Program-made: the position numbers and the translations under genes
In this document: positions 424 through 49,800 of the stretch, in pieces
Layout: each line of letters starts with the position of its first letter
Numbering within the stretch: the stretch's first letter is position 1
Assembly (NCBI GenBank): GCA_947462335.1
Contig: OX381705.1
Coordinates: forward strand, 48,056,898-48,120,897
From: Harmothoe impar
Taxonomy: Eukaryota > Annelida > Polychaeta > Phyllodocida > Polynoidae
Direction of reading: 5' to 3'
Length of the DNA stretch: 64,000 nucleotides
Notes under the pieces: model-generated
Told to the model about the DNA's origin: nothing
Database searches by the model: none
Seen by the model: only the letters and a program-made list of their open reading frames with translations

Positions 424-18009
<17,586 letters not shown>

Positions 18010-23499: not shown

Positions 23500-23578
23500 A
23501 TGAAATCAGCTAATTCCTTTATGACCAGGTATCTCCTACCTTACCTGTATGGTCTTTGGATGTGCCTGACTACCATAG
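23500..23578 (+). CDS. Exon 1 of the GH-D-like gene: signal peptide
   Basis: Encodes a hydrophobic leader whose core is RYLLPYLYGLWMCLTTI, ending in phase 1 at GTAAGT. The open frame extends upstream to ATG at 23413, which would add 29 charged residues before the leader. I chose 23500 because a signal peptide should be close to the N terminus. The next exon supplies IQVLPLQTASSPAFEVRTSP. Confidence 0.75.
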
Positions 23579-26500
23579 GTAAGTATGCGTTGGTTACCTG
23601 TGCCAAAGAAGCTTAGAAGCATCCACCTGATCTGGGCACCATCCAGCATGAGATGACATAGTAGCCTACTTCTTCAAGTTCAAGAGCTTGTAAGATTGTC
23701 TTCCCCAGTCTCATTTCTATGCAGACACGAAGTAAACGTTGAACCTACCATAGGTTGAATCATAGCCATACGTAGAATAATATCCAGTAGTAGTTAATAT
23801 TATGTCATGTCATACTCATCATTGTAGATAACATGCTCATCATTAATTGTAATATGGGTGTGGACCACCAAATTCGACATGGCAACATGGCTATTTCTTA
23901 TATTCGACAATCGACATGAGGCCTAGTGACATGCGACATGAGGCTCAAAAAACATAGTGACAGGCACCATGAGCAGTTCTTAAAATCGACATGGGACATG
24001 GCCATTATTAAGCGACATTGACATGCGACATGGCCATTTTTTAAGATCGAATATCGACATGGGGACCCCCCATCCAGACCCATCTGGGACCAGACCCCCT
24101 GTAATAACAATTTAATACCGGATACCATTGCACTACTGCTTTCAGTCATCCAGGTCCTACCACTTCAGACGGCGTCTTCCCCCGCCTTTGAAGTAAGGAC
24201 TTCTCCAGGTGGCAGCTATGAGGTGGTGGTACAAGGCAAACCATGGTTACATAGTGATGACATCTTCCTCCGGACTCAGCACACACTATGGACAACACAT
24301 GATGACTCATTGGTGTTGTGTGGCACACGTGGACACAGCTCAGGGAAGGACAAGCTTGGGAGGTATTAAAGATGTACCAGTTTTGAAGATGAAGATGTAC
24401 AGTAGCCTCATGTTCTCATATGTGGCTCCAGATAGGTCAAAAGCGACCTGGGCTGTTTTGGTGGCGACTTCCGACCTAAAGCAATAATGATAAGCGACCT
24501 GGCGACTTTTGGATAAAATTCACTATAGATTAAAGGGTCCAGAAATGCGACTTTTCGACCTGGACCCCTTCATGTAGTAGGTAAAAAGCAGACAAAATAT
24601 ATTTGTCTAAACTCCTCAGACCGTAGTCTAACATTTCCCGCTATGCCCTGTTAAATAATAAGATGTATCTTGAATGTTGAGAAAAGATATATAAGTAAAT
24701 CATCATAATACGGTATTGTGTTTCCGTCATCTGTCACCCATTTCCTCCAAACCTGCCTTGAATGCACTCCTTGCCGAGGAACCTCGCAGGCTCTTGCCTA
24801 TAGGGGCCAAATGGGGGTTCGAGCTGAGGGCCGGAGTGCCCCTTGCCCCCGGGCTTAAAGCATTGGTATCGGAATACCGAATCAGAAGGTCATCCTGGGA
24901 TCGAAGCACAGGTACCTTAATTAATTAAGGACTTTTAAATGCACAACCTGCATAACGTGTTGACCTACTACTGCAATACTTATATTATATATTGCTAGGT
25001 GGGATAGTTTCAACTATGGATATCGACTCAAGTCAGCTGCCCCATGCGTGATGAATGTCAGCATCAAATCATACCCAGAGAAAAACATGGCCATATTCTC
25101 ACAGGTAAGGATATCAGGGGTCCTATATTCTCCTGGACATATAATCTATAACGCTTGAAATATATCATTGTAATCCAACTCCACAATTGAATTCTGTTCA
25201 TGACAACCAGTCAGTTTCATATCTATTTAAACCAAGTCTCCTAATATATTTTCAATCTGCATATATTTATCAGCATCATAGGATGAAACACGGATTTATT
25301 GTAATTCTCCTATGTGTGCGGCGAATAACGTTCTGTTACAGAACTATTCCGTACATTAAACAAATTCAAATTCAATCGTTGATTTAACAATCCTCTTCAT
25401 AGATTGTTCGGTCACTGACTTATTCCTTATGACCACTGTTCTCTACAGACCTTTCCATATGGATTACACAATACCAGTAGTGGGGATATGAATGCTGTTG
25501 TCAGCAGTTTCCCATCCTTCAGCGTTGATGGTGATGGTTCACTCGGTGTGCTGTCATTTGGAGGGCTATTCTCATGGATAGGGCTACAGACTCAAAGGTA
25601 GAAATACAGAGTGATACATGTATAGATGTAGGAGTTATATAGGCCTACTGGATGGATTATGCAAAAATTATGTCTACTTTCCCTTCTACACATCATACAC
25701 TTATAACATAAATGCTAAATTGCCGGCTGTATCTGGTGTTAATATTGATTGTAATTATGTTTGTTTATATGAAGCCCTTAAATAAGTATATTCCATCCGG
25801 GTAACCTCGTCAACTCAAATGCGGGACTTGACTCGGTCATTTTGGACCACTTCACATGGTGGGTGTATCCTCGCACGCCCTTTTACAGCCAAGCCTCTGT
25901 ACACATACACTACAGAATATAGTCCCCCAATTTTACCCCCAGAAATATCGTATTCTTCACTAAATAGTGACAGTATTCGATTCAATTCACCTGGGAATAC
26001 TATATTCTGAAAGAATATGTCACAATATAGGTCTGTGAATATCACTTTTAAAGCTAAATTCGGTCCACAAATTTGGGCATGGCAGTTGGGATTTCGAAAT
26101 GTTGTTTAGGCCAAAAAAAAAAAAAGGTTTGTTTCAGGTCACCTGACCGACCCTATCTAAATAGGGCCGACCCTACGTTTTTTTATGCAATTTTGAAGAA
26201 ATTTTTATATTTTTATAATTTTTTGGGGTCAATTTAAGGTCCACAAAATTTTGGGAAAAAACTCCACATTTTTTCACTTTTTTAGGTCAATTTTGGAGGG
26301 GAAGTAAAAAAAAAAAAGTAAAAAAAAAATAAAAAAATCCGACCTACCGACCCTAGAGTTTCTTCCCATGTTACCTGAAACAAACCTTTTTTTTTATTTG
26401 GCCTTACAAACAAGGCAAGCTGTCAAACTTGGCACAGGCTATTTGACATAGAATATGAGCCATTTTCGGTAAGATATTGACAAATGAATGTTGTCTTATG

Positions 26501-29283
26501 CAGATTATATCTAGATATGTGGGTGACAATGTCTGTATGAAATATTAGAAAATCTGACAGATCCGCGCACATGGGAAGTAGTCCGGACCCTCATGTAAGA
26601 GAAAGGTTCCCGTATTAGAACTTGAGCTTGTAAGTGTGAGTATATTCATGGTGGAAAGTACTTCCATGAACCTAACTGACCACTGGAAGTACTAGTACTT
26701 GGTGTTAATTTCTGAACACAATTTGACAGTGTACTCTTTGTCTTATGTATCTGACATTGCTACTCAATGTATACTTATACAGTTACCAACTAATGCTTTG
26801 ATTTAGAAAAAATAGACAATGGCCACGTTATTGATGTATACGTCATCAATTTACAATTTACAGGTTTACCAAGGGGCTGAATATAACAGATGGCATGGGA
26901 AGTGGACCACTTGTATTATTCGACAAAGCTGGTTCCGCTTTGATCGTGTCAACGTTCTCCGAATTCATGTCTTCTTCCATGTGGTATAATCAACAGCGAG
27001 AGAGCTTACATTGGGGAGTAATGGGTAAAGCCGCAAGGATACCGACCGCATTTACCACTGAAACGATTATATTCTATAGTCAGGAGGGTATAAATCAGGT
27101 AAGATTAACCCACCAATATCTTTATATCTGTAGACATATAAGATAGATGAAGCCATGAGATGATTACATCATATGATGTTTAAACTTTTCAAATTAGCAT
27201 GAGATGATATTGAACTTTCCTTTCAAATACTAAAGTCATACAATATGATGGTTATTAAGAGCTATCCATTCACATGCTAAATTACAAGACTGCCCATCTA
27301 TGATATCCTTGCAGGCCATGTCTGGATGGGGAGACGTATTACGTTTTTGGTATGGAAAAGATGTAACACGGCAGAGAAAAGACCTCACCATCTCCCACCT
27401 AGGTTACTACACAGACAACGGTTAGTTTTACCCAACTCTGACCTTGGCATTCCCCCCAAATTCAGTAGAAAACTAGAAATACAGTGTACCCTGATAAGAA
27501 CATTGCTCCCTGACAGTTTCTACATGTTTGACTAGAGGGGTCATTTACTATCCTGAGCCCCTGTGGGATATGTCACCACCCCCTGGGAATAATACATGTC
27601 AACACACTCAGAAAGGTCAGCGTCATTGTCGCTAAAACCACTCTCACCTGAAAGTCAGGCACTGCCTAAGGGGCTCGTGACTGTAAGGACATGTGCATAA
27701 TGTATATGTTCTATATTGAATTTCCATTATTATTTAAGGTGCCTACTATTACCATAACTTGCAACCACCCTTTGACAACTATGAACAGTTGATGATAGCC
27801 AAAGCAGGCAATAGGAGCATACCTTACAGGTAAGGGATTATACTATGTATTGTCACATAACAAACGATGTACCTAGGTATCTATAACATAATGAAAGGGA
27901 AAACTAGATATATGAAACTAGCAGTGCAAGAATATCCCCTATCGAATGACTGAATGATGGTGGTGTTACAGCAGCTTAAAGGGACTCGCTACTTGTCGCA
28001 GGATTACTGATGTTCTATTGACCTTTGCATATAACTCAGGATTATGTCAGTTTGATTTATTATCTAATAGAAAATAAAGAAATAGTAGTGAATACAAATA
28101 GTTGATTTAGGGAAAGTGGTCTATGTAGGAATATGAATACAGCTTAAAGAATACTTTTCATGAGCTTCGATTTTTGCCACCAGGTGGCTTCTGTGTAGGA
28201 ACCAGCAATTCCCTTTAAAGTGGGTATATCCGCCTTAAATATGTTCCAAATACTGTAAAAAGTATATCTATTATCTATGGATTGGGATACATTAGAATGG
28301 TATGGATCCATGAAAAGTGGGAGCTCAGAAAGGGGGTCCCATGGGATCGTCTTTGCATAGATATGTCTAGGTAAAAAATAGCTAAACCCCATTGGAACAT
28401 ATGTTCTCAAACTTCATTGATATTCATAGGCTTTACCTATCACATGAAAGACTACCATCACAGACATTGAAGTGGAGTTTTGACTATGGTACAGTTAAGC
28501 TTTTTTTTACCTTTAGGTATCTTCAATATGATGACTGGTGGTACTACATCAAAGGACCTGGCTATGGGGCCACTGTCCGGTGGGAGGCCATGCATGATAT
28601 ATTTCCTCATGGGCTTGAGTAAGTTCCACCAGCGGTATAGTATAATAATATCATAGTATAGTAAAAATCCTACATTATGCTACATTATTGTATAACACAG
28701 CTTATCATGGTAAAAATCGACCTTTCCCTTCTATCTCATTGGTCCAGAATAGCATAAGATTGAATTTATAACTCAAATATAAAGTATTTATGTAAATGGC
28801 ACCTACTATTGTTCTTTACAGCTGGTTATACAACAAAACGGGTTTACCAGTGCTAGCACACAATAGATACTGGTTAGTACCCTAATACATAATACTGTCT
28901 ATATATTCAATATAAAGGTATAACAATGCTACTCTAGGGATCATATATTTCGCAATACAGGAAAAATTACTCTAAGTAAAATTCTCTCGCTCTGGCTTTT
29001 GGTGGCATTCTACACATACAAGCAAATTAGAGCTATGGCATGGCCATATTGTATAGCGAACACTATGAACTGCTTGTACATATTATTTTGTGTCAGAGGG
29101 ATATTGCATTTGGTCCTTCCTACAGGTCAAGCACGACACCTTATGCTAAATCGAATGGAGGCGAATTTGAGTTCATCACTTACCAAGGTCACTCAATGCC
29201 GGTGGAACAGGTAGGGTGTATTATAGAACTGCATGTCAGATTTTCCAAACCATTGACAAAATCCTTTACAATCACTCCCCCAT

Positions 29284-29326
<43 letters not shown>

Positions 29327-31768
29327 AGTCTTGCATACTTTCAACTACCCATTTCATCATCCTATTAGAAATTCTGGGAGTGGCTATTTAAAAGAGCAAT
29401 CCGCTGGGGGATGGTGACATACGAACAGGACTGGCTGAACTATCAAACCGAGCGCATCTTCCAACTACACTCGGATGTTGGACTCTCCTCACTATGGCTG
29501 AACCAGATGGGTGTGGCGGCATCACACCACAACATCACCATACAGTACTGTATGGCTCTGCCAAGACACCTCCTCCAGAGCCTACTCATCCCAGCTGTCA
29601 CACAGGTCAGTTAAATGCCATAGGAATTGTGAGAAATTGATTTTCACTGCCTTAATTAGGTCGCTGCCTTAATCAGTAGTATACTGATATGTCAATACAG
29701 CTAATCCATACTCCACTGTCACATACAGGCTCGGGTGAGTTTGGACTACCACCTTAAGACCGACCAGTGGCGGATTGGTGTCTCCTCTATATTTGCTGCT
29801 GCAGTTGGTTTAGCACCTTTCAAGGACAACTTCTGGTCAAGCAGCGTAGAGAGGGGCAATCCATACAGTGAGTGGTGTTTTTTTCTAGTTTGTCATTACG
29901 CTTATTGTAGCTCATTATCATTATAAATACAATACCTGCATCATATCACATAGCTCGCCACAAAATAAGACAACATGCACTTCATTAAATTGATTTGATA
30001 ATCTAGCATTACTCACTTCAGATACCACAGAGAAAAGCCCACTTCTACAAGCTATGGTGTCCATCCTGAGCACTGGACCAGTGGCACCTGGAGACGGATA
30101 CAAGATGTCCAATACAAACCTTATCTCAAGGTAGGAGTCTATTGCCTGGCAAATCGGTTGGGAAGGTCAATCAAATCCTCAAATAATTGCAATAAGTGAG
30201 GGCCTGCCCAGTGAACATTCTGCTACCAAAAGATGGTTTTCCCCAAAGAAAATTATATCTAAAGTTCTTGAATGGATTTATCGCATTTTTCAAACAAATT
30301 CCTCAAATGTATAATCGTTATGAATAGTTTGTAAATCAAGTCTGAATTTGTAAACTCTGACATGTTTGCTTTGCTAGACTGCATCGATCTGATGGACTTC
30401 TGCTAAAGCCGGGCAGGCCAGCCCTTGCCATCAATGCACAAATACATCAGGTATGATATTTAAGTATAGCAGCACCAAATTGGGCTGTCCAGTAATAAAT
30501 TCTCAATATAAATCTGCAACTATTTTATGACTATTTCGCACAATGTACCTGCTTCTTTTTGTCCAAGAGGTGGGATGATTAGCATTATTGATGATGTGCT
30601 ACCTTATGCTTTTGAAATAAAACAAAATAGGCCCTTATAAAATTTAGGCAAAGTGAAGAGAATAATGATTGAATTATAGTGTGTGACATATCTGAGAACT
30701 GCGGTTCATTCTATACAGATGGCATACAAAGATGGGGCAGGTCCTAATGGTGAGGTGTGGAGCACATATTCAGACATCAGTGGACTGCGTTTTGGTATTG
30801 TGTTTGCAGCAGACCTGACTACCCCATACAGCATAGGGCCCACTATAGCAGGCTTTGGTAAATTGGTAAGTGTAGTAAGAAATACATAGTCATGATCATG
30901 ATATCTACTCATCTAGTACTAGTATTAACAGTTGGAAATACAGCAGTAGCATTGGATTGTAATGTGACTTTATCTGAACTGTTGCTATTTCATGCTGTTT
31001 CAAACCTACTGATGATGAGCGTTCAAGTCGATTTTATCCATGTCAAGTGTATTAATTTCATACATATAAAATGAACATTAATTGATCATATAATCCGTGT
31101 AAACTGTAATCAACTTTCAGACACATCCTACAGTGGCATACTCTTATAGAGATAACGGATCCTCCAGAGGTGTGCAGAGATTCAGTGATGAGCACCCTTT
31201 GAAGTTAAAGCACTGTCCCATCACTGAACCATGCCTTTGGTATACAACACCCTATCTCACGTATAGGTATGTTATCTCATCTATTACAATTATTATCCAC
31301 TACACACGGTACATGTTTCAATACTGTCACAGTTAAATGGACTCACATGGTATGCATTCATGGTTATCACAGTTTGTTCAGTATCTTCTAATAAATATGC
31401 TTATCTCTGTAACATATTGCAATGCACCCGTAGGTCAGCAGAGCGGCTGATTGAGAGATTAAAGAATTGGGACATTTGCTCCCATTTGTATTCATATTAA
31501 TGCAATGGTGTATTTCTTTTTTTGCAGTGGGAAGCGTATTGCACTTCTCGGTGAGCTGGACAAGCTTATCCCCATATCACCCCAGCGCATCCTCCAGGTT
31601 ACCGTATCAGCCAATGATGTGCTGGTATTGCTCCAGGGCGTGCCTGGAGAGGTGGTCACCCTCTCTGTGCTAACCGCCAATGGCCAGGTGAAAATAGACT
31701 GTACCAAATTCGGACAACATGGACATTCAGTGATCAGTGTTAGAAAACAACAGTGCTATCCTACTTAA
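23500..31768 (+). CDS. Secreted, divergent clan GH-D-like glycosidase homologue (17 exons, 770 aa)
   Basis: Exons: 23500-23578, 24146-24362, 24999-25104, 25449-25597, 26864-27098, 27315-27420, 27739-27829, 28517-28618, 28822-28872, 29126-29210, 29369-29605, 29729-29867, 30022-30130, 30378-30450, 30719-30865, 31121-31266, 31528-31768. Every junction is GT..AG, every phase matches, and the joined frame is 2313 nt to TAA. Residues 1-26 are a signal peptide. Residues about 27-262 look like a beta-rich N-terminal domain. Residues about 263-530 follow the motif order of GH27/GH36 TIM barrels: LGYYTDNGAYYY (291-302), YDDWWY (332-337), IFPHGLDWLYNKTGLPV (356-372), the WGMVTYEQDW strand (420-429), HNITIQYCMALP (461-472) and APFKDNFW (515-522). 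The C-terminal part is beta-rich. Fold assignment is inference from motifs; substrate is unknown. Confidence 0.9.
23853..24112. repeat. Dispersed GACATGG-type repeat, copy 2
   Basis: Lies in intron 1 of the GH-D-like gene. Starts TATGGGTGTGGACCACCAAA and ends GGGGACCCCCCATCCAGACC, with a partial duplicate of the end. Confidence 0.75.
24763..24915. other. GC-rich island in intron 2 of the GH-D-like gene
   Basis: A sharply GC-richer block in an AT-rich intron, containing GCCCCTTGCCCCCGGGC and TGGTATCGGAATACCGA. It is open in frame on both strands, but it has no splice sites in phase and would break the otherwise exact exon chain. It could be an old repeat; I cannot identify it. Confidence 0.4.
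26109..26403. mobile_element. Harbinger-like MITE, 295 bp (TTA duplication)
   Basis: Begins GGCCAAAAAAA then GGTTTGTTTCAGGT, and ends with the inverse ACCTGAAACAAACC followed by a T-run and GGCC. TTA flanks both sides (26106-26108 and 26404-26406). It sits in intron 4 of the GH-D-like gene. Confidence 0.8.
28517..28872 (+). CDS. Exons 8-9 of the GH-D-like gene: DDWW and FPHGL motifs
   Basis: Exons 28517-28618 and 28822-28872 encode QYDDWWY followed by W-E-A-M-H-D-I-F-P-H-G-L, then GLPVLAHNRYW. In GH27 alpha-galactosidases a DDxW motif (sugar binding) is followed by an FPxG(I/M)xxL helix and a (H/K)xxGLxxGIY strand. Order and spacing here agree, although the spacing between DDWW and FPHG is shorter. 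This is the strongest sequence support for the fold. Confidence 0.7.
29285..29322. repeat. (CA)n microsatellite
   Basis: About 19 CA units in the intron before exon 11 of the GH-D-like gene. Confidence 0.95.
29369..29605 (+). CDS. Exon 11 of the GH-D-like gene: candidate nucleophile strand
   Basis: Encodes RAIRWGMVTYEQDWLNYQ, which corresponds to the clan GH-D strand with consensus WG(V/I)D-x-(L/I)-K-x-D. D428 would be the nucleophile, but the conserved lysine is replaced by E426. The exon then gives SSLWLNQMGVAASHHNITIQ, which fits the helix and strand after the nucleophile in this clan. The residue assignment is inference. Confidence 0.6.
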
Positions 31769-44999: not shown

Positions 45000-46660
45000 A
45001 GCCTCGATTAGCTCAGGTTTTTGTAATGGTCAGATCTTTTCATAGCGGTTCTATTTGTAATTTTCATTGTTATACTGCATGTTAAATGTTAGGCTCATGT
45101 CAATTTGGACATTAAATAAAGGGCATGTTTATTGAATGACCTATTGACATTGGTCATTACAGTGAAGTAATAAATGGTTAGGGTTCATTGAAGGTCAACA
45201 AAAGCATAGCTTTTGACTATATTATATACACTGATAGTATGTCAACTGGTACAATGGTACAGCATGTTTCCTGTAGCGCAATGGATTATGTTCATGACAT
45301 CAATCTGACCACAGAATAAACGGACACCGGGTTAATACGGTCATCATAGAAATAGTAAATATCCCTAGGCTTAGGGAGATATCCATTGTTTATTATCAGT
45401 CTACCCCCATTATTATGATGACCAATCTGTCGGTCAGCGAGTCAGGGGCCTCTAGCAGCCTCCCTTGCCTGACCATCAGTGCCATGGTCCCCCAATCACC
45501 TTCTATTGAATGGCTTAATTAGCTTGGTCACTATACCAGGTCCAATTAGGACATAATTACTGGGGTCAAGGTCAGCTCGATCGGGGTCATCGGTCACATG
45601 GGGTGCAGTGCACACGTGGTCTAGATGGGTCCAGTCCCACAATGCATTGGGGCTGATGGGATTTTGGTGAGTAGCTTCAATGGTCTTTATGAGAGTAACG
45701 GCAGTCAGTGGGAGATAGGAGCGTGCCCACTGGGTCACAGAAGGTTGTGGTATGATGGAGGAGGCCAAGGTTTTGAGCTACTCAGGGTGGGACCAAAATG
45801 AGTTGTTCAAAAGCATGCTGTTACGATGAGACTGTTGTGCAGCACTAAGACGTAATATTATAGTCTGGTGTGATAGGCATGGGGAACATAAATCAACAAA
45901 GAGAGAAAATGAACAATTGTATTTATGGAATAGGAGTAACAGGAAGTATTAATGAGGACAGTAAAGAACAGGATGACAGAGACAAGAGAAAATGAAAATG
46001 CAGTGTCTTGGATTCTACCAATGCCGAATAGTTTTATAATTTCAAGAGAATACTGTCAGTAGGCCCCAGTGCTTCTTACTATCAGTGACTTACTATCTTG
46101 TTGCCTTTGAAATATTGAGCAGAGATCGGTCTGGCAATTCACCATGCATTTTGAACTGCAGACATGACAGCAGGCCTAGTAATAACAGAGCATCTGACAC
46201 CCACCAATTGATTCCCCGATGGCAGGCTACATTGAATAACTCTACACTGGCCCTCAGTGCCCCAGGGTGTTAGTGACATTCGGCCACTACTGCGTGGAAA
46301 GGAGCTATTGGAGAAATTCTCCCTTTCCAACTGTATGTTAAAGAATATTGTAAATTGTGCTCAAAAACGGAGGGGGCACCCCCTCTAAATCTGCCACTGG
46401 AAAGGCAATATGTTGAAGTTGTGTTCAGGACTGTAGTGAACTATGTAATCGGAGAACATGTACTTACACACTTTTATATATCTAACTTTCCCAGCAGCAG
46501 TATCCACCCTTTATCAACACGATCTCTGGTCTGACAATATAGATATATCTGCTAACCTTTCGTCCTGCCAACCCTCGCCCCCGCCCCCTCACACTCATCC
46601 CTCACTCTCCGACGTTCCCCCCTTTTGCTCGCCCTCCTTCATGTCCGGCCCTGCCCTGCC
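45000..46660. other. Unassigned non-coding stretch
   Basis: No splice-supported frame. A CCCACTGGG-containing sequence at about 45724 matches the terminal motif of the foldback element at 60483. Confidence 0.4.
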
Positions 46661-46661
46661 C

Positions 46662-46792
46662 TTCCTTCCTTCCTTCCTTCCTTCCTTCCTTCCTTCCTTC
46701 CTTCCTTCCTTCCTTCCTTCCTTCCTTCCTTCCTTCCTTCCTTCCTTCCTTCCTTCCTTCCTTCCTTCCTTCCTTCCTTCCTTCCTTCCTTC
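46662..46792. repeat. (CCTT)n microsatellite
   Basis: About 33 uninterrupted TTCC units within a longer pyrimidine-rich strand (46560-46870). Frames across it are Ser/Phe/Leu/Pro or Lys/Glu/Gly/Arg repeats and are not genes. Confidence 0.97.
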
Positions 46793-46869
46793 CTCTCTCC
46801 TCCCCTTCCCCTATTTATCCTCTCTCTCCGTCCTTCCCCCGTTTGCTCACCCCACTCCCCCGCCCACAC

Positions 46870-49800
46870 TAATGGAAGTGTAGAGCTGTATGGAACATAT
46901 ACCCCTCATGGCTTCTCCTCCTAGAGCAATTTGGTCAGATTAGATTTGCTGGTCTAGGCAGTCATGATAGCAGGGGCGACGGAGGATTCGATAGGTAGTA
47001 CGGTCTGGTGTAGACCTATGGGATTAGTATATGTATACATACAGTGTAAAGGTCTTGTCATTAACAATACAATACATATAGGATAATGCCCCTCCATCTC
47101 CATTATACTATATCTATTCTGCTTATTGTATACCGGTAGCATAGAGATGCTGTATCTAGGAACAGTGAGATAGGGGGCGTTACACCCTATATGGAGACTC
47201 TGTTTCTGCTGTCCAACATGCAACTCTCCTCAGAAATTCATCCAGCTTATACAGTATAACTATCTATGCAGGCATGTGCAATGAATTGGAGTGTTTGACT
47301 TACTTAAATGCATCTCATAAAATTGATTATGTCTACCTCATCAATCATTACTATACATATCAGAGTCAGTCAATTATTCACAACACTACAGACCAGTTTA
47401 TATCACAGGTTGACAATTATCACACGTAGACCCCCTTTGTGAACTCAAGCTTGGAGACTTTGTAAAGAATGAGATCAGTCTCTTGTAGTAGAACCACCGA
47501 TGCATTGCCAAAATATAAAAGGTGATGCTGTCAAAGAACTGGTTCATATAGTATAGAGCACATCACTAGTGATTAGTACTGTGATTGATTGATAAGACAT
47601 GGATCTATCACACTTAGTGATGAGATTGATTATCCCACAGGTATGCCCTTGTCATCCCAATTCCCTCAACCAAACACAGCCCGACAAGGAACACTAACAG
47701 TGCCTATGAATTGTAATATAAAGTGCATTGTGAGCTATATTTAGTTACAATCTGGAAAAGGTGCAGTGGTATGATTACTCAAAATCATGATAGTCAAATT
47801 ATTCAAGTCCAAATGTACATTCATTATTTCGGTACAGCACTGATGACATTCTGACAACTTGATTGGGTGAATCTATAGTTACAATGCAGACTCAACAGAG
47901 CGGGTCCAGACCAATCCCTTGGATCCTCTTTTTTTCTATGTCTGTTTATAAAGTGATTACAATATGTCTGAATGGTCATTGACCTTATGATAGTCTGCAT
48001 GACTACGAAGTATAATGCACTTTGATAGCGTTCCTCACAAGTAAGATACTCCATTATAATTTTCAGCAGCTCATTTAGTGCCAGAGTATGTGCAATGTGA
48101 ATTGAACTCTTTGGTACACTGGGAAATATTCATGTTCATTTTAGAACCAATTCATTTCAAAGTTTAATGTTTACTGAGAGTAATCGACTAAATTCTCTTG
48201 TTAAACGCGTATTTGCATGATAACTACATAATATTGGCTACCTTCACTTCATTCCCAAACACAGGGGTCACCAACATTTTGGAACAGCTTATTCTGTACC
48301 CCATGCTTATATTGTGTGTGTGTTTTAAAGCTCCACAACCTGTGGCAAAAACTGCAGGTTAAACCTTCTCTTGAAGGGGCAGGGGCTTCTGACCTACTAC
48401 TCCCCTAGCATCCCCCTGCCACGCCCCTCAGCTCAAAAAAGAGGTATCAAACAAAAACTCCACATACTAATAGCAGTTAAATAGGGCAGTACCACCTGCA
48501 AATGCAGCTGCAACAGTGACCCATGGCTACTTGTGTGCGTGCAAGCTTATCAATATAATTTCAGATTCCCTTCTAAGACAAGCATTAATGATGCGTTGAA
48601 ATCTGTTGGCATTGTACAATTTTACTTCAGTGATAATTGAGTGCATGGATTTGAATTTCACGTGTGTTCTTTCAAATCGACTACTTAACCATTTTGGGTC
48701 TGCGTAGTCACTGTTCCATCTAACCTGGCTAACTATGGGATGTGCTGTTAGTTGGGCCAGGATGGGTTCAAAGCAGGTACAATTAGCGGTAACCCAGGGG
48801 TGAGAGGAGGAGGGGGAGGGGAGGGGTTGTGATAGGAAGGGGAGGGGTCGGTTTAGGGGTGTGGACTGGGAAGCGCATCACAGCCGTGCCATTAGTAGCC
48901 ATTCAGCCTCACAGCACCACGACCAGGCGGATGGAAGTTTTTCCTTCTTTTTAGGAAGGGAGAGGGGTAAAGGTTAGCGAGTAGAAACATGGGTTTGGGT
49001 AGTTTGGGGGAAAGGACCAAAGAACTCAGCTGGGTGGCTGGGGCTTACTAGAAAAGGGGGTTCACCTCATGGGCACAGGAGGTGCCGCTATTTAAACTTA
49101 AGTTTCCATGGCAAGGACATGATTTTCTTGCATAGGCTATGTCGTTGATGAATATGCTGATATGCTGAACTGTTCAACATCTGGGGTCTATAATGTCATA
49201 AAGAAATGAATGAGTTAACCTTACATTTATTGTTCTTGTTATATGTAATGATAACGCTCCAAGGAGTCCCTACGTAGTGTCCCCAATGCAGAGTAGCAAT
49301 AATATGTGACGAGTGATATAATGGGAACCGATTTAGACGTTAGTACACATCACATTAATTTTAGTTAGAAGCTCAGTGCCCCTATATATAGCGCTGAGTA
49401 CCTGTCCCGACTCCACTCCGACTGCCGCTGGAGGGGTACCGAGACCTGCGGGTTTAAGGGAGTGTGGAATGACACAACAATTCGGGTCATGGCCATGGGA
49501 AAATGTGACATGTAGCACCGTCATTGGGGGTGGAGGTGTGGTATAATCAAGTGTGACGGGGCGTGAAGGTGGTGGTTAGGGGTTTTAGGGACTGCATGCC
49601 ACCCCATACATACCCCCCCCCCCCCTCATCCCCCAGACTCCCGTCGTCACTCAACCCCATGTAGTCAACCATCTCCACCAGCCCCACACACTGAACATTG
49701 AGCTTTGACCTGTCTGTGCTATCGAGGGAGCCACTTTCTCTCCACTTTTATATGAATTAATTCTGTCCATGGCCACATGTCGATGCTCCGGGTTCATGCT

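What the first reader, a model, noticed from the sequence alone, without database searches (positions are those of the whole stretch)
23500..31768. Divergent secreted clan GH-D-like protein with a replaced catalytic-strand lysine
The 17 exons join without a frame break into a 770-aa secreted protein. Seen: DDWW, IFPHGLDWL, GLPV, WGMVTYEQDW and HNITIQYC appear in the order of the GH27/GH36 TIM barrel. Known: clan GH-D nucleophiles sit in a K-x-D motif. Inferred: here it is E426-Q-D428, with D519 (APFKDNFW) as possible acid/base. The protein may be a new glycosidase family or a lectin-like pseudoenzyme for marine glycans.
Basis: partly seen in the sequence, partly recalled or inferred. Interest (0 to 1): 0.75.

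Follow-up and report, generated by a model that had tools for sequence, protein, structure and literature searches.

The report
Uncharted family of secreted sugar-cleaving enzymes
This animal gene encodes a probably secreted protein that very likely has the fold and catalytic pair of plant and bacterial alpha-galactosidases, but it belongs to a large, unnamed family in which a sugar-contacting lysine is a glutamate in every relative compared, so its substrate may be a different sugar and is unknown.

The parts
23500..31768 (+). Gene: 17 coding exons, 770 aa. Exons 23500-23578, 24146-24362, 24999-25104, 25449-25597, 26864-27098, 27315-27420, 27739-27829, 28517-28618, 28822-28872, 29126-29210, 29369-29605, 29729-29867, 30022-30130, 30378-30450, 30719-30865, 31121-31266, 31528-31768
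   Evidence: all 16 introns GT/AG, phases close, stop TAA at 31766-31768; homologs over nearly the whole length
23500..23578 (+). Exon 1: start Met, basic and hydrophobic leader (signal-peptide-like; cleavage site not predicted)
   Evidence: judged by eye, no signal-peptide program was run
24146..27098 (+). Exons 2-5: N-terminal beta domain (about residues 30-262)
   Evidence: DSSP of model m2b5721ad020e of P0002, boundaries by eye; structural match from model residue 26 to chain residue 5 of 7exg
28530..28535 (+). D333-D334 after barrel strand β2; D333 is the likely counterpart of D243 of AtAkαGal3 (galactose contact)
   Evidence: D333 214 of 214; position 334 is Ser in 190 of 214 and Asp in 9 of 214; paired with IIDDGW in the forced global hhalign
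29423..29431 (+). E426-Q427-D428 at the end of barrel strand β4; D428 = proposed nucleophile, E426 in the place of the lysine of K-x-D
   Evidence: E426 and D428 each 213 of 213 aligned residues, one gap; β4 = model residues 410-415, D416 next
29732..29746 (+). R488-x-S490-x-D492 at the end of β6; D492 = proposed acid/base, R488 = proposed sugar-binding Arg
   Evidence: R488 213 of 214, D492 214 of 214; aligned with R443-A-S-D-D447 of AtAkαGal3
29822..29827 (+). K518-D519 after β7: barrel rim; not the acid/base. D519 may be the counterpart of D477 or D479 of AtAkαGal3
   Evidence: 213 of 213 aligned residues each, one gap; β7 = model residues 503-505, K506-D507 next; in the alignment K-D stands against M474-Q475, two residues before D477
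30719..31768 (+). Exons 15-17: C-terminal beta domain (boundaries by eye)
   Evidence: DSSP of the model; structural match to chain residue 749 of 7exg

Best explanation
The gene encodes a probably secreted and active retaining alpha-glycosidase of the clan GH-D type. It has three domains (N-terminal beta domain, (β/α)8 barrel, C-terminal beta domain) laid out as in the plant GH36 alkaline alpha-galactosidase. D428 after β4 attacks the anomeric carbon and D492 after β6 is the acid/base; D333 and R488 hold the -1 sugar. Shown: the fold (by prediction, on a 45%-identical relative), the near whole-length structural match, the alignment of D492 with a proven acid/base, and the invariance of these residues. 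Inferred: the chemistry, the residue pairing at β4, and that E426 in place of the lysine of K-x-D, together with the invariant K518, changes which sugar is taken in the -1 subsite. The likeliest role is breakdown of dietary or environmental alpha-glycosides outside the cell or in digestive vacuoles. The substrate is unknown.
Against: No enzymatic data were found for any member. The confident profile alignment covers only β5-β8; forced global hhalign placed β4 three residues off, with no confidence there, so the pairing of E426/D428 with K381/D383 rests on spacing and on the predicted strand end. The model is of P0002 (Liolophura), not of the window's own protein. The window protein has no Pfam match at E <= 1, and the members shown singly stay below every GH cut-off. 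The loss of the lysine and, in most members, of the second Asp of the β2 pair could also mean lost activity.
Confidence: 0.8

Rival explanations
1. It is simply a divergent GH36-type alpha-galactosidase, and the glutamate does not change the specificity.
For: The closest structures are alpha-galactosidases. The window protein and eight other members keep the Asp-Asp pair (D333-D334) that contacts galactose in AtAkαGal3 (PMC9912918).
Against: In AtAkαGal3 K381 hydrogen-bonds the galactose (PMC9912918), and at the proposed counterpart lysine is never seen (0 of 213). In 190 of 214 members the second Asp of the β2 pair is Ser.
Confidence: 0.25
2. It is a transglycosylase (synthase) like the raffinose and stachyose synthases, not mainly a hydrolase.
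For: The nearest structure is an enzyme with both hydrolase and stachyose synthase activity, and its relatives include RFO synthases (PMC9912918, abstract and section 3).
Against: The leader suggests secretion (by eye), and the named taxa are mostly feeders on other organisms (lifestyles recalled). Nothing here tests acceptor use.
Confidence: 0.15
3. One reading: a non-catalytic, lectin-like pseudoenzyme.
For: The lysine of K-x-D is replaced; no curated sequence model passes its cut-off.
Against: D428, D492 and the sugar-site residues D333 and R488 are invariant or missed once in 214 sequences from animals, protists and a bacterium. Pseudoenzymes normally lose such residues.
Confidence: 0.06
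4. The β4 register is shifted by two: E426 is the nucleophile and D428 is something else.
For: Both residues are invariant and, two apart on a strand, should point to the same side; hhalign does not settle β4.
Against: The spacing to D492 fits D428 exactly (64 in both families). In the model the strand ends just before the Asp at β2 as well as at β4. The same comparison with a GH36 model was too poor to count (pLDDT 58.6).
Confidence: 0.07

Closest known systems
AtAkαGal3, Arabidopsis alkaline alpha-galactosidase, 'probable galactinol-sucrose galactosyltransferase 6' (GH36; PDB 7exf, 7exg, 7exh, 7exj; Pfam PF05691)
   Different: Only 13-14% identity in the structural alignment; K381 of K-V-D is glutamate in the new family; no lysine stands against K518 in the profile alignment; members score below the PF05691 cut-off (best 15.4 bits against 20)
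GH36 bacterial alpha-galactosidases (e.g. Thermotoga maritima GalA, 1zy9, 6gwg)
   Different: Shorter match; Pfam Melibiase hit by one of 35 members only, 20.9 bits against a cut-off of 27
GH27 alpha-galactosidases and alpha-N-acetylgalactosaminidases (1uas, 1r46, 1ktb)
   Different: No counterpart of the N-terminal domain in the match (model 267-674); GH27 carries K-x-D (PMC9912918)
GH31 (YicI 8t7z, MYORG 7qqf) and GH97 (8wg1, 2jka)
   Different: Weaker matches than AtAkαGal3; the GH31 barrel model is hit by one of 35 members, 18.3 bits against 23.5

Membership tests
Clan GH-D / alpha-galactosidase superfamily | (β/α)8 barrel of the alpha-galactosidase type | tested here: met
Clan GH-D / alpha-galactosidase superfamily | Nucleophile Asp at the C-terminal end of β4 | tested here: met
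   β4 = P0002 410-415, D416 next, = window D428; invariant. Strand rule from PMC1249566, passages. Coordinates were not superposed and the profile alignment does not settle β4
Clan GH-D / alpha-galactosidase superfamily | Proton donor at the C-terminal end of β6, in R-x-x-x-D | tested here: met
   β6 = P0002 472-476, R476 last, D480 = window D492; aligned with RASDD447
GH27 and GH36 | K-x-D motif at the nucleophile | tested here: not met
   E-x-D in 213 of 213 aligned residues
GH36 raffinose synthase / alkaline alpha-galactosidase (PF05691) | Score above the Pfam curated cut-off | tested here: not met
   Window protein: no match at E <= 1. 5 of 35 members match weakly, best E 0.0042; the three seen singly score 11.1-15.4 bits, cut-off 20
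GH36 raffinose synthase / alkaline alpha-galactosidase (PF05691) | Three-domain architecture | tested here: met
   VIA-align 600 residues, model 26-748 against chain 5-749
GH36 raffinose synthase / alkaline alpha-galactosidase (PF05691) | Activity on alpha-galactosides | not testable with these tools
   Needs a bench assay
GH27 | Match to a GH27 sequence model | tested here: not met
   No GH27 model among the matches of the window protein or of 35 members in Pfam
GH31 | PF01055 score above cut-off | tested here: not met
   1 of 35 members, 18.3 bits against 23.5
GH97 | Sequence or structural identity with GH97 | tested here: inconclusive
   Foldseek E 4.1e-16, weaker than AtAkαGal3; no GH97 Pfam match
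A CAZy family already defined outside Pfam | Assignment by CAZy or dbCAN | not testable with these tools
   Neither is held here

The most novel reading that the evidence does not exclude
The family is a new glycoside hydrolase family of clan GH-D with a charge-swapped -1 subsite: the lysine that contacts the sugar in GH36 has become an invariant glutamate on β4, while an invariant lysine (K518) has appeared after β7 beside D519, giving a specificity not seen in GH27 or GH36. It would be an old secreted enzyme shared by invertebrate animals and protists, and lost or absent in vertebrates and insects (no such name among the listed hits, which are capped lists).
Probability: 0.55. Interest if true: 0.65.

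Novelty: new variant of a known kind. Interest (0 to 1): 0.5.

Why it matters
At least 319 proteins, those with readable names being 'uncharacterized' or 'hypothetical' with one exception, can be given a fold, a catalytic pair and a testable chemistry. A strictly conserved change at a residue that contacts the sugar is a direct handle on a possible new specificity within a clan of much-studied enzymes (the human Fabry-disease enzyme belongs to it; recalled). It may also help to explain which algal or microbial glycans these animals can digest.

Tried and rejected
Rejected: D519 as acid/base (it follows β7). Rejected: chance assembly of exons. Tried without result: Pfam, NCBIfam and PDB sequence searches with the single protein gave nothing at E <= 1, 1 and 10. 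Pattern-based scan of viral contigs: 8 stretches, 0 relatives. Rfam (gathering thresholds) and tRNA scans of the window: nothing. Printed work: nine paper searches were answered; judged from the listed titles and starts of abstracts, none was on this family. One search looked for five LOC numbers and one older gene name of members and found 0 papers. The library holds only open-licence papers, so this is weak evidence of novelty. The UniRef name 'Alpha-L-fucosidase' of the Prorocentrum member P0149 has no Pfam support and was not used. A GH36 control model from 20 plant sequences came out poor (pLDDT 58.6), so its strand ends, although consistent, are not counted as evidence. hhalign could not fix the β4 register and put it three residues off. 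Families absent from the 50 rows were not taken as evidence.

Substrate guesses such as amino sugars or algal galactolipids were considered and left out of the explanation, because nothing here tests them.

Full report
What is there. The window carries a 17-exon gene on the + strand at 23500-31768. It starts with a hydrophobic leader (by eye), has eight N-glycosylation sequons, and has no second copy in the window. Upstream are open frames with calcium-binding EGF domains.

It belongs to a real family. A search of about 5.8 billion proteins gave 319 matches at E <= 1e-3 among the 7993 candidates scored, 120 listed, the best 45% identical over 99% of the searched region. Searching from a distant member (P0116) gave 308, 120 listed. 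As far as the lists print names, they are 'uncharacterized', 'hypothetical' or 'unnamed', except one UniRef 'Alpha-L-fucosidase' without Pfam support. No vertebrate or insect name appears in the two lists, but both are cut at 120. Haliotis rubra, H. rufescens and Littorina saxatilis each have several members with neighbouring locus numbers, which suggests tandem expansion. In the collection of one genome for each of 84,980 prokaryote species, two peptide patterns found four stretches, of which one is a relative: an intron-free 786-aa frame in an Armatimonadetes MAG, among genes that look bacterial by eye. The pattern scan is narrow, so other bacterial members may exist. In a midpoint-rooted FastTree tree of 196 of 214 sequences (18 with more gaps dropped) the window protein groups with the two Capitella proteins and one unnamed one (support 0.997), then with Owenia P0048 (0.921); the named ones are annelids.

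Sequence link. The 35-sequence profile finds AtAkαGal3 in the PDB at E 0.0015, with the next family, ribosomal S18, at 0.15. Against 20 plant GH36 sequences hhalign gives probability 92%, E 7.5e-7, and 92%, E 6.7e-7 with the 79-sequence profile; reversed profiles score 17 instead of 64-66. The match covers β5 to β8. Pfam matches of members are weak: Raffinose_syn 5 of 35, Melibiase 1 of 35, GH31 barrel 1 of 35, all of those seen singly below cut-off.

Catalytic residues. In AtAkαGal3 the nucleophile is D383 in 381-KVD-383 and the acid/base is D447 in 443-RASDD-447. The authors report that D383A and D447A abolish raffinose hydrolysis in their TLC assay, and also that D383A crystals slowly hydrolysed raffinose. 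K381, R443, D243, D244 and W307 contact galactose, and D479 does so through water (PMC9912918, section 3, parts 1 and 2 of 3 read). In GH27 and GH31 the nucleophile sits at the end of β4 and the proton donor at the end of β6 (PMC1249566, passages). In the model β2 is 319-322 followed by D323, β4 is 410-415 followed by D416, β6 is 472-476 with R476 last and D480 four on, β7 is 503-505 followed by K506-D507. In window numbers these are D333, D428, R488, D492, K518 and D519. The acid/base is thus D492, and this pairing lies in the confident part of the profile alignment. D519 may be the counterpart of D477 or D479 of AtAkαGal3: in the alignment it stands two residues before D477. The nucleophile pairing D428-D383 rests on strand position and spacing: the distance to the acid/base is 64 in the window protein, in 176 of the 202 family proteins in which both motifs were found (of 212 searched; 19 more have 63 or 65), and in 114 of 118 plant proteins (of 120). 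Forced global hhalign aligned β4 three residues off with no confidence, and a GH36 control model was too poor to use.

Conservation. In an alignment of 214 sequences (212 database proteins, the window protein, the MAG protein), D333 and D492 are 214 of 214, R488 213 of 214, and E426, D428, K518 and D519 213 of 213 with one gap each. Position 334 is Ser in 190 and Asp in 9, among them the window protein and its three tree neighbours. The barrel is the best conserved part: mean identity to the window protein 48.5% (213 sequences), against 30.7% for the N-terminal (189) and 32.6% for the C-terminal domain (203). Such constraint on both catalytic acids speaks for active enzymes.

Interpretation. 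What it works like: a retaining alpha-glycosidase of clan GH-D. What it is a member of: the clan by fold and catalytic positions as far as tested, but no named family, since the K-x-D motif is absent and no curated sequence model passes. The glutamate in place of a lysine that holds the sugar, and the invariant K518, suggest a different -1 sugar; this is inference. A role in digesting food or environmental glycans is also inference, from the leader and the taxa.

Limits. No activity data, no coordinates for superposition, no CAZy search, and the genome-search service did not complete, so the organism and its other copies are unknown.

Noticed in passing
L001:5905-8265: An intron-free relative (786 aa, 37% identical) lies in an Armatimonadetes MAG contig among bacterial-looking genes: a possible transfer between a eukaryote and a bacterium, in either direction.
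   Followed up: partly
window 9026-9855: Two open frames with calcium-binding EGF domains, probably exons of an upstream gene; by eye a membrane segment and proline-rich tail at 16171-16875.
   Followed up: partly
window 28533-28535 (residue 334): The second residue of the β2 pair is Ser in 190 of 214 members but Asp in the window protein and eight others, which may mark a subgroup with galactose-like recognition.
   Followed up: partly
window 12032-13242 and 46449-46924: Long repetitive stretches that give spurious long open frames (seen; no repeat finder was run).
   Followed up: no
P0149: UniRef names the Prorocentrum member 'Alpha-L-fucosidase' although no Pfam domain is found in it.
   Followed up: partly
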